Assembly (NCBI GenBank): GCA_014360825.1
Contig: JACIWT010000003.1
Span: 62,001 to 126,000 of the forward strand
Source of the DNA: Chloroflexota bacterium
GTDB lineage: Bacteria > Chloroflexota > Anaerolineae > UBA2200 > JACIWT01
Reading direction: 5' to 3'
DNA length: 64,000 bases
Both the position numbers and the translations under genes were made by a program. Below are positions 217-33,808 of the stretch, in pieces. Below the pieces are notes generated by a model. The model had not been told where the DNA came from. It saw only the letters and a program-made list of their open reading frames with translations, and made no database searches. How positions within the stretch are numbered: the stretch's first letter is position 1; each line of letters starts with the position of its first letter.

Positions 217-372
217 CCCTCATCTTCCAGAGAACTACCGCTTGGACGGCAAGCCTCTGCCGGACTTGGCACCGTGATCAGGCACATCCGAACAGAAGGA
301 ACTCAACGCGGCGCGCCTGAAATGGTTGCCGGGGTTTCACAGGGCCGGTCCCTCCACCCCTCTGGATAAGAG
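217..372 (-). promoter_or_regulatory. SAM-I (S-box) riboswitch aptamer
   Basis: The minus strand carries the S-box signature in order: CTCTTATCCAGAG, GGTGGAGGGAC, GGCCCTGTGAAACCC, CGGCAACC, then after a variable arm GGTGCCAAGTCC and GGCAGA, closing with GATGAGGG. The first CTCTTATC pairs with the last GATGAGGG over 8 bases with two G-U pairs, forming helix P1. S-box RNAs bind S-adenosylmethionine and usually cause early termination. Here a terminator follows and the target is mtnA, a methionine-salvage gene. I could not compute a fold or covariance score. Confidence 0.93.
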
Positions 373-31087: not shown

Positions 31088-31357
31088 ATGGCTTTGGAGA
31101 AGGGCGAGAAAGAAGCCATCATCAAAGAATATCACGTTCATCCCAAAGATACGGGGTCACCTGAGGTGCAGATTGCTCTCTTGACCAAGCGCATCAATGA
31201 TCTCACCGAGCACTTAAAGGTGCATACCCACGATGAACATTCCCGTCGCGGTTTACTCAGGCTTGTTGGGCGACGCCGTCGCCACCTTGCCTACTTGAGT
31301 CGCGTGGATACAGAACGCTATCGCGCTATTGTAGCACGACTTGGACTGCGCAAGTAG
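31088..31357 (+). CDS. rpsO: 30S ribosomal protein S15 (uS15)
   Basis: A protein of 89 residues, the standard length. S15 binds the three-way junction of 16S rRNA early in 30S assembly. Seen: [46 protein letters not shown] and [12 protein letters not shown]. It lies upstream of pnp, the same order as in many bacteria including E. coli. Confidence 0.98.
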
Positions 31358-31384
31358 TTGGGAATCCAATACTTTGTTCCACGG

Positions 31385-31419
31385 AACGAGTAGGTGGAGG
31401 TAATGACATCTACTCGTTT
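31385..31419 (+). terminator. Hairpin after rpsO
   Basis: AACGAGTAG (31385-31393) pairs with CTACTCGTT (31410-31418), giving a 9-bp stem followed by TTGTTG. It may be a leaky terminator or processing site in the rpsO-pnp gap. Confidence 0.6.
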
Positions 31420-31463: not shown

Positions 31464-31587
31464 GGGAGATCGGAACGGGTGGTGCAGGAATTGGGGAGTG
31501 CGTCACATGGACGCCGTCAGTAACTGCAGTAGGGTATTCTGCCCATGGGACTTACTCCCCAGTCCCTGACCGCCGATCCGATCTCCT
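31464..31587 (+). promoter_or_regulatory. Long imperfect hairpin in the pnp leader
   Basis: Bases 31464-31510 pair with 31542-31587 to form a stem of about 46 bp. I count about 38 Watson-Crick or wobble pairs, six mismatches and one bulge by hand. The longest runs are GGAGATCGGA and TGGGGAGT against their complements. The loop is about 31 bases. The stem ends 16 bases before the pnp ATG. In E. coli a long pnp leader stem is cut by RNase III and lets PNPase repress itself; a similar role here is inference. Confidence 0.8.
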
Positions 31588-31603
31588 GAACTATGGAGAA
31601 AGG

Positions 31604-33808
31604 ATGCATGATTTCATGGTGAAAACAGTTAGCGCGCCATTGGGCAATTCCACTGTTTACATTGAGACTGGCAAGTTGGCAGGTCAGGCTGGTGGTTCTG
31701 TGACTGTCCGTTGCGGTGATACTTTATTGCTTGCTACAGCCACAGCCAGCAAAGAAATCCGTGAGGGAACTGACTTTTTCCCCCTGACGGTGGATTACGA
31801 GGAGCGTTTATATGCCGCCGGAAAAATCCCTGGAGGCTTCTTTAAGCGCGAGGGTCGCCCCACTGAGGCTGCAATCCTCCTCTGCCGGCTGGTAGATCGA
31901 CCCATCCGTCCGCTTTTTCCGAAAGGCCTGCGCAACGAGGTCCAGATCGTTCTCACTGCTCTCTCTGCCGACCAGGAACACTACTTGGATATCCTGGCCA
32001 TCATCGGCGCATCCGCCGCTCTGACTATCTCCGATATCCCGTTCTTGGGACCCGTCGGCGCCATTCGCGTTGGCTATGTGGATGGGCAACTCGTTTTCAA
32101 TCCCACTGCCTCTCAGATGGAAAAGAGCACGCTCGATCTGCGACTGGCAGGCACAGCCGATGCCGTGATGATGGTAGAGGCCGGAGCCAACGAAGTCTCC
32201 GAAGACCTCGTGTTAGAGGCTATCCAGCGTGGCCATGAGGCCATGCAAAGTGTTATCCAGATGCAAAACGAATTGCGCGAGGCAGTAGGAAAACCAAAAG
32301 GCAATTATCCCCTTTTCGATATCGGCGACGAGGTTCGCCAAGCCATTAGTACGGCCTGGGACGATCGCATTTGGGAGGTGTTGCAAAACGCAGGCGACAA
32401 GGGCGAAAGGAATGAGGCTCTGGATGCGTTGCGTGCTGAGGTTGTCGCCAGCCTGGGCGAGAAGTTCGAGGAAGCGGTGGTGTCCCAGGCTTTTGACGAG
32501 CGAGTGAAGGCCGTAGTCCGCGATGGCATTCTGAACAAGCGCATCCGACCCGATGGGCGTGATTTCACTACCATTCGGCCCATTAGTTGTGAGGTAGGTC
32601 TTCTGCCTCGGACCCATGGTTCGGGACTATTCACGCGTGGCCAAACGCAAGTGCTCACCATTGCTACCCTGGGCACCGTCAGCGATGAGCAAATCCTCGA
32701 GGGATTAGAGCCTGTCGAATCGAAGCGATATATGCATCATTATAACTTCCCGCCGTATAGCACGGGCGAGACCCGACCTATGCGTGGCCCCGGTCGTCGC
32801 GAGATCGGACACGGTGCTTTGGCAGAGCGGGCCCTGGTCCCGGTACTGCCGCCGGAAGAGGAGTTCCCCTACACCATTCGCTTGGTGTCCGAGGTCCTAT
32901 CTTCCAACGGTTCCACCTCGATGGCCAGCGTCTGCGCCAGTACCTTGGCGCTTATGGATGCTGGTGTCCCAATCCGCAAGCCCGTGGCGGGCATCGCGAT
33001 GGGGCTGGTGAAGGGCGAAAACGAGAGCGCCATCCTGACTGATATCATCGGCATGGAAGATCAACTGGGTGACATGGACTTCAAAGTAGCGGGCACCCGC
33101 GATGGCATTACTGCCCTGCAAATGGACATTAAGATCAAGGGTGTCTCCCCTGAGATCACACGGCGCGCATTGGCTCAGGCTCGCGAGGCTCGTCTCTTTG
33201 TGTTGGACAAGATGCGCGAGACCATCGCTGAACCGCGCCCGACGCTCTCGCCACATGCACCGCGCATCACACTTATCAAGATTGATCCCGAGAAGATCGG
33301 CACGGTCATCGGCCCTGGCGGAAAAACCATTCGTGGCATCATCGAGGAAACGGGCGCCAAAATTGATGTCGAAGATGACGGCACCGTCTACATCGCTACC
33401 ACCAATGGTGCGAGCAGCGACAAGGCCGTGGAGATGATTCGCCGCCTGACCGAAGAACCGCAGGTTGGCAAGATATACACGGGTAAGGTGGTGCGAATTA
33501 CGGACTTCGGAGCCTTCGTCGAGATTCTACCAGGCAAGGATGGTCTGGTGCATATCTCCCAACTGGCCGATTACCGGGTGTCCAAGGTTGAGGACGCAGT
33601 GCATGTGGGCGATGAGGTCATGGTCATGGTAATAGACATTGATTCGGAGGGCAAGATCAAACTCTCCCGCCAGGCCGTGCTGGAAGGCTGGACAGTCGAA
33701 GAGGCTCGTGAGCGTGACCGAAAGCCAGCGAGTGTTAGTGGGCGCCGACGCCCGTCTGGCCCTCGCGACCGTCGCGGCGGGAGCGGGCCTAACAGACCTC
33801 ATCGGTGA
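31604..33808 (+). CDS. pnp: Polynucleotide phosphorylase
   Basis: A protein of 734 residues. A trimeric phosphorolytic 3'-5' exonuclease of the RNA degradosome. Domains in order: RNase PH 1 (about 5-140), helical domain, RNase PH 2 (about 315-545), KH ([20 protein letters not shown], about 555-610) and S1 ([19 protein letters not shown], about 620-695), followed by a basic tail. Active-site [16 protein letters not shown] and [16 protein letters not shown] are intact. ATG 31604 has GGAG 5 bases upstream; ATG 31616 is an alternative. Confidence 0.97.

What the first reader, a model, noticed from the sequence alone, without database searches (positions are those of the whole stretch)
31464..31587. 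A near 46-bp imperfect hairpin directly before pnp
The two arms pair at about 38 of 46 positions with one bulge, ending 16 bases before the PNPase start. E. coli controls pnp through an RNase III-cut leader stem that PNPase then degrades. A stem of this size in the same place, behind rpsO, suggests a similar feedback loop in a distant phylum, or independent evolution of it.
Basis: partly seen in the sequence, partly recalled or inferred. Interest (0 to 1): 0.65.

Follow-up and report, generated by a model that had tools for sequence, protein, structure and literature searches.

The report
Conserved RNA switch before pnp gene
The messenger RNA just before the gene for the RNA-degrading enzyme PNPase folds into a long hairpin that most members of a large class of bacteria (Anaerolineae) share, and its far arm can also cover the gene's ribosome-binding site, so PNPase could plausibly shut off its own synthesis by eating the near arm.

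Summary
The hairpin is real (31464-31587, -70.8 kcal/mol, z = -7.3) and is not a local oddity. It is a conserved RNA element in the rpsO-pnp gap across the class Anaerolineae (Chloroflexota): strict core in 46 of 57 pnp-retrieved leaders, including all 30 nearest, and in 181 of 298 class genomes by covariance model (a lower bound). The core is 5'-AGG-N-AUUGG...CCAGU-N-CCU-3', with a maintained mismatch, a near-invariant U.G wobble and a hypervariable apex. No Rfam family covers it.

Beyond the finding: the 3' arm is also complementary to the pnp Shine-Dalgarno (SD) region of its own genome, more than to other genomes' (0/2000 permutations; independent nearest-pair test p = 0.001; 5'-arm control null). 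Removing the 5' arm in silico lowers SD accessibility from 0.45 to 0.22. The E. coli leader shows no such change.

Best reading: an RNase III/PNPase feedback leader of the E. coli/Streptomyces kind, as a separate RNA family with a built-in SD-hiding step. Structure, conservation and alternative pairing are shown; cleavage, trimming and feedback are inferred. New variant of a known kind.

The parts
31088..31357 (+). rpsO, ribosomal protein S15 (upstream gene)
   Evidence: PF00312, E 1.3e-35
31384..31419 (+). Hairpin A, short stem directly after rpsO (arms 31385-31396 and 31407-31418), terminator-like position
   Evidence: Inverted repeat; same place in relatives; GAGYAG..CTRCTCG form in 42 of 105 rpsO-adjacent gaps
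31464..31587 (+). Long pnp leader hairpin (the finding)
   Evidence: Fold z -7.3; conserved with covariation in relatives
31486..31494 (+). Core, 5' strand AGGAATTGG; A31489 faces C31564 (mismatch), T31491 faces G31562 (U.G wobble)
   Evidence: Pair table on 46 strict-core leaders retrieved by pnp homology and alignment A1
31559..31567 (+). Core, 3' strand CCAGTCCCT
31500..31553 (+). Apical part, hypervariable in sequence and length among relatives (30-223 nt between core strands)
31576..31586 (+). 3' arm segment that can leave the hairpin and pair with the SD and start codon (31576-31579 with 31602-31605; 31582-31586 with 31595-31599)
   Evidence: Fold of the leader without its 5' arm; genome-specific complementarity across 109 leaders
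31595..31603 (+). Shine-Dalgarno region GGAGAAAGG of pnp
   Evidence: Sequence; position relative to ATG 31604 and ATG 31616
31604..33808 (+). pnp, polynucleotide phosphorylase (start 31604, or 31616 in frame)
   Evidence: RNase_PH, PNPase, KH_1 and S1 domains; 55-75% identity to relatives

Best explanation
The hairpin is a cis-acting feedback leader of the pnp mRNA. In the intact transcript the 5' and 3' arms pair, which keeps the 3' arm away from the Shine-Dalgarno, so pnp is translated. RNase III cuts the long duplex; PNPase then degrades the 5' arm from its new 3' end, as reported for E. coli. The freed 3' arm folds onto the SD and start codon and stops translation, after which the mRNA decays. 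High PNPase therefore lowers its own synthesis. Shown here: the structure, its class-wide conservation and covariation, its fixed place before pnp, and the second pairing with the SD. Inferred: RNase III cutting, PNPase trimming, the direction of regulation, and the role of the conserved core, which I guess positions RNase III or binds a protein.
For: Fold z -7.3. 19 pairs, 91.8% of cells paired against 32-52% with slid partners, 38 double-change cells, 0/500 shuffles as high. 46 of 57 pnp-retrieved leaders have the strict core; 181 of 298 class genomes hit by the model, with strong hits between rpsO and pnp. All 109 stems have 28 bp or more, long enough for RNase III; RNase III is encoded. 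3' arm to own SD -11.87 against -9.33 swapped, 0/2000; nearest-relative pairs 36 to 14, p 0.0013, control 24 to 30. SD unpaired probability 0.45 intact, 0.22 without the 5' arm, 82 of 102 leaders fall. The same architecture is RNase III-cut in E. coli and S. coelicolor (PMC10126417; PMC7866481; PMC10362022).
Against: No transcript or cleavage data. The SD pairing is not universal: some leaders lack a complementary segment, and 20 of 102 show no fall in accessibility. In the window itself the SD is already poorly accessible with the intact hairpin (0.11, falling to 0.00). A 3' arm to upstream-segment control is mildly positive (z -2.5). In R. sphaeroides an rnc mutant showed no effect on pnp mRNA (PMC7866481), so RNase III control of pnp is not general. 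RNase III is not known to need a conserved sequence core (my knowledge), so the core is unexplained by cleavage alone.
Confidence: 0.62

Rival explanations
1. A protein-binding translational operator without cleavage: PNPase (KH/S1), S15 or another protein binds the conserved core in the intact stem and controls whether the 3' arm folds onto the SD.
For: The core is conserved in sequence on both strands, with a maintained mismatch and a U.G wobble, which looks like a recognition site rather than mere duplex. An RNase III-independent translational repression by PNPase is reported for E. coli (reference 10 in PMC10362022).
Against: A stem of 28 bp or more in all 109 leaders is longer than such an operator needs. 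KH and S1 domains bind single strands as a rule (my knowledge).
Confidence: 0.2
2. A processing or stability stem only: RNase III separates rpsO and pnp messages or the stem shields a message end, without feedback; the pairing with the SD is incidental.
For: Location between two cotranscribed genes with different demand; RNase III is present.
Against: Genome-specific 3' arm to SD complementarity survives matching by close relatives and GC matching, so it is not incidental to composition.
Confidence: 0.13
3. A transcription terminator, a dispersed repeat, or a chance palindrome.
For: Some class genomes carry hundreds of GGGATTR inverted arrays that resemble the core and explain the model's hits away from pnp.
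Against: No T-run follows the stem and the scan finds no terminator there. The core occurs once in the own genome, which has no GGGATTR arrays. Covariation and fixed position in tens of families exclude chance.
Confidence: 0.02

Closest known systems
E. coli pnp leader (RNase III-cut stem, PNPase autocontrol)
   Same: Same order of parts: rpsO, terminator, long stem, SD, pnp; long duplex suited to RNase III; RNase III gene present.
   Different: No shared sequence core; the E. coli SD accessibility does not change when the 5' arm is removed (0.39/0.39), against 0.45 to 0.22 here.
Streptomyces coelicolor rpsO-pnp intergenic hairpin
   Same: Intergenic hairpin after an rpsO terminator; cut by RNase III; rnc loss raises PNPase activity 2-4 fold (PMC10126417; PMC5872136).
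   Different: Cut on both sides of a 4/4 internal loop; here the internal feature is a 1x1 mismatch and bulges. Sequence not compared directly.
Actino-pnp RNA (RF01688)
   Same: A conserved cis-regulatory RNA named for pnp, in Actinomycetales (PMC2864571).
   Different: Its model gives no match in the own genome at E <= 1 or in the leader at E <= 10.

Membership tests
RNase III-processed pnp leader (E. coli/Streptomyces functional class) | Long stem between rpsO and pnp | tested here: met
RNase III-processed pnp leader (E. coli/Streptomyces functional class) | Duplex of about two helical turns or more | tested here: met
   28 to 81 bp, median 40, in 109 leaders
RNase III-processed pnp leader (E. 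coli/Streptomyces functional class) | RNase III encoded in the genome | tested here: met
   TIGR02191, 241.5 bits, over cut-off
RNase III-processed pnp leader (E. coli/Streptomyces functional class) | RNase III cleavage of the stem, PNPase degradation of the upstream strand, and negative feedback on pnp | not testable with these tools
   Needs RNA ends, mutants or purified enzymes
E. coli pnp leader as a sequence family | Shared sequence or covariance-model match | tested here: not met
   E. coli leader lacks the AGGNAUUGG/CCAGUNCCU core by inspection; no Rfam family exists for it beyond SraG and the S15 leader, and neither matches here
Actino-pnp (RF01688) | Match to the covariance model | tested here: not met
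   No match in own genome or leader; note that no control genome exceeded the cut-off either, so no positive control
Intrinsic terminator | Run of T after the stem | tested here: not met
   Sequence after 31587 is GAACTATGGAG (base 31588 on); scan

The most novel reading that the evidence does not exclude
An exonuclease-operated RNA switch: instead of binding a ligand, the leader senses PNPase because the enzyme removes one arm of the hairpin, and the other arm then folds onto the Shine-Dalgarno. It would be a class-wide RNA family with its own recognition core, distinct from the E. coli leader.
Probability: 0.5. Interest if true: 0.75.

Novelty: new variant of a known kind. Interest (0 to 1): 0.6.

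Why it matters
PNPase autocontrol is a textbook case worked out mainly in E. coli. A separately conserved leader in a mostly uncultured class would show that control of pnp through a double-stranded leader is widespread, and would offer a mechanism in which RNA processing directly flips a ribosome-site switch. It also supplies an RNA family missing from Rfam 15, and a conserved duplex motif whose binding partner can be sought.

Tried and rejected
Rfam at gathering and relaxed thresholds: only chance microRNA models. Intrinsic terminator: no T-run. Dispersed repeat: core unique in the own genome and GGGATTR arrays absent there. Opposite-strand RNA: outside the core mismatch and wobble, G.U-type pairs outnumber A.C-type about 56 to 14 on the + strand (my sum), which favours the pnp sense strand. 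The literature held here gave no Chloroflexota pnp leader; the 2017 survey of 224 RNA motifs and the primary E. coli and Streptomyces papers are not held (for the latter), so an earlier description cannot be excluded.

Full report
Observation. The window carries rpsO (31088-31357) and pnp (31604-33808) on the + strand. Between them lie a short hairpin at 31384-31419 and the long hairpin of the finding. Folding 31464-31587 gives -70.8 kcal/mol against -43.4 +/- 3.7 for shuffles, z -7.3.

Where it comes from. The genome is an unnamed draft assembly. A contig of a same-order relative (G004:C31, 48,703 bases) has the same length as the public record DCVA01000053.1, titled Anaerolineales bacterium UBA2200, and pnp-linked hits bear titles such as Anaerolineales, Caldilineales, Thermoflexales, Aggregatilineales and Ardenticatenia. 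I take the class to be Anaerolineae of Chloroflexota; this is inference from record titles.

Conservation. I fetched pnp from 60 relatives and read their rpsO-pnp gaps. All 30 nearest have the same hairpin. In the set retrieved by pnp homology alone, 46 of 57 leaders have the strict core, five more have recognisable variants (L100, L101, L103, L106, L108), two have a different hairpin and four have none that I recognise (variants judged by eye). A covariance model from 27 leaders hits 181 of 298 class genomes, a lower bound because few candidates per genome are scored and long-loop copies are missed. In a phylum-wide draw it hits 14 of 400; five of these lie outside the class, are weak, and four of the five sit directly before pnp (L073, L074, L075, L077). 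One family of the class has the core with a compensatory change, GGAAUUGA..UCAGUCCC (L107, L278-L280). Leaders of many other families of the phylum lack it.

Structure. Over 19 pairs in 27 leaders 91.8% of cells are paired, against 32-52% with slid partners; 10 pairs have double changes, and no shuffle of 500 reached the 38 double-change cells. In the pnp-retrieved set the U.G wobble, the next U-A pair and one G-C pair are the same in all 46 strict-core leaders, while the position facing C31564 stays mismatched in 42 of 46 (A.C, U.C, G.G, U.U, G.A). Caution: the strict core was found with a pattern that fixes several of these letters, and the relaxed variants include one (L106) with U-A in place of U.G. 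The core strands lie 30 to 223 nt apart. All 109 non-redundant leaders have at least 28 bp; many of these 109 were fetched with the exact core pattern, so letter frequencies from that set are biased, but its outer arms and SD regions were not selected.

A second pairing. In many relatives the 3' arm reads GACCTCC while the SD downstream reads GGAGGT. I tested whether this is genome-specific. In 109 leaders the 20 nt around and after the end of the core pair with their own SD region at -11.87 kcal/mol on average, against -9.33 when SD regions are swapped between genomes (sd 0.22; 0 of 2000). Controls: 5' arm to SD has no effect, 3' arm to loop z 0.8, 3' arm to an upstream segment z -2.5. With the closest relatives matched in 54 disjoint pairs, own pairing beats swapped in 36 against 14 (p 0.0013), while the 5' arm to SD control gives 24 against 30. 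So the 3' arm is under two constraints: pairing with the 5' arm and pairing with the SD. Where both use the same bases, they exclude each other.

Consequence. Predicted SD accessibility is 0.45 with the intact hairpin and 0.22 when the 5' arm is removed; it falls in 82 of 102 leaders. If the tail of the 3' arm is shuffled it is 0.32. In the window, removing the 5' arm lets 31576-31586 fold onto 31595-31605, covering SD and ATG, though the SD is already poorly accessible before (0.11 to 0.00). The E. coli leader shows no change, 0.39 to 0.39.

Mechanism. In E. coli RNase III cuts the leader stem and PNPase degrades the upstream strand, which leads to loss of the mRNA (PMC7866481; PMC10362022). 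RNase III represses PNPase in several distant bacteria (PMC8708148), in S. coelicolor by cutting the rpsO-pnp hairpin (PMC10126417). The window's genome encodes RNase III. The simplest reading of the Anaerolineae leader is the same loop with an explicit last step, in which the freed 3' arm closes the ribosome site. I put this at 0.62. Structure, conservation, covariation and dual complementarity are shown. Cutting, trimming and feedback are inferred.

Novelty. The functional kind is known; the RNA family is, as far as Rfam 15 and the held literature show, not described. I file it as a new variant of a known kind: it probably works like the E. coli leader but is not shown to be related to it by descent.

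Noticed in passing
31384-31419; relatives L002-L029: A second conserved hairpin directly after rpsO, arms ACGAGTAGATG..CATCTACTCGT. It sits where the E. coli rpsO terminator sits, but its sequence is conserved far more than terminators usually are (GAGYAG..CTRCTCG in 42 of 105 gaps), and the palindrome occurs once in the own genome.
   Followed up: partly
G100 (L111, L113, L285), G119 (L116), G243 (L117), G192: Dispersed inverted arrays of GGGATTA/GGGATTG heptamers, 448 pattern matches in G100 and none in the window's genome. They resemble the core and cause the model's hits away from pnp.
   Followed up: partly
L117, about 1540-1690: In G243 a hairpin with a core-like sequence, CAGGGATTGGGGA..TCCCCAGTCCCTGACC, sits directly before the ATG of an M20-peptidase-like gene (gene name by eye), perhaps a heptamer-array relative put to use, or chance.
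   Followed up: no
L104, L105 (family f5): Two class members lack the core but have a different hairpin before pnp with arms TTAGAGG..CCTCTAA, possibly a replaced version.
   Followed up: no
217-372, minus strand: SAM riboswitch (RF00162, 78.3 bits).
   Followed up: no
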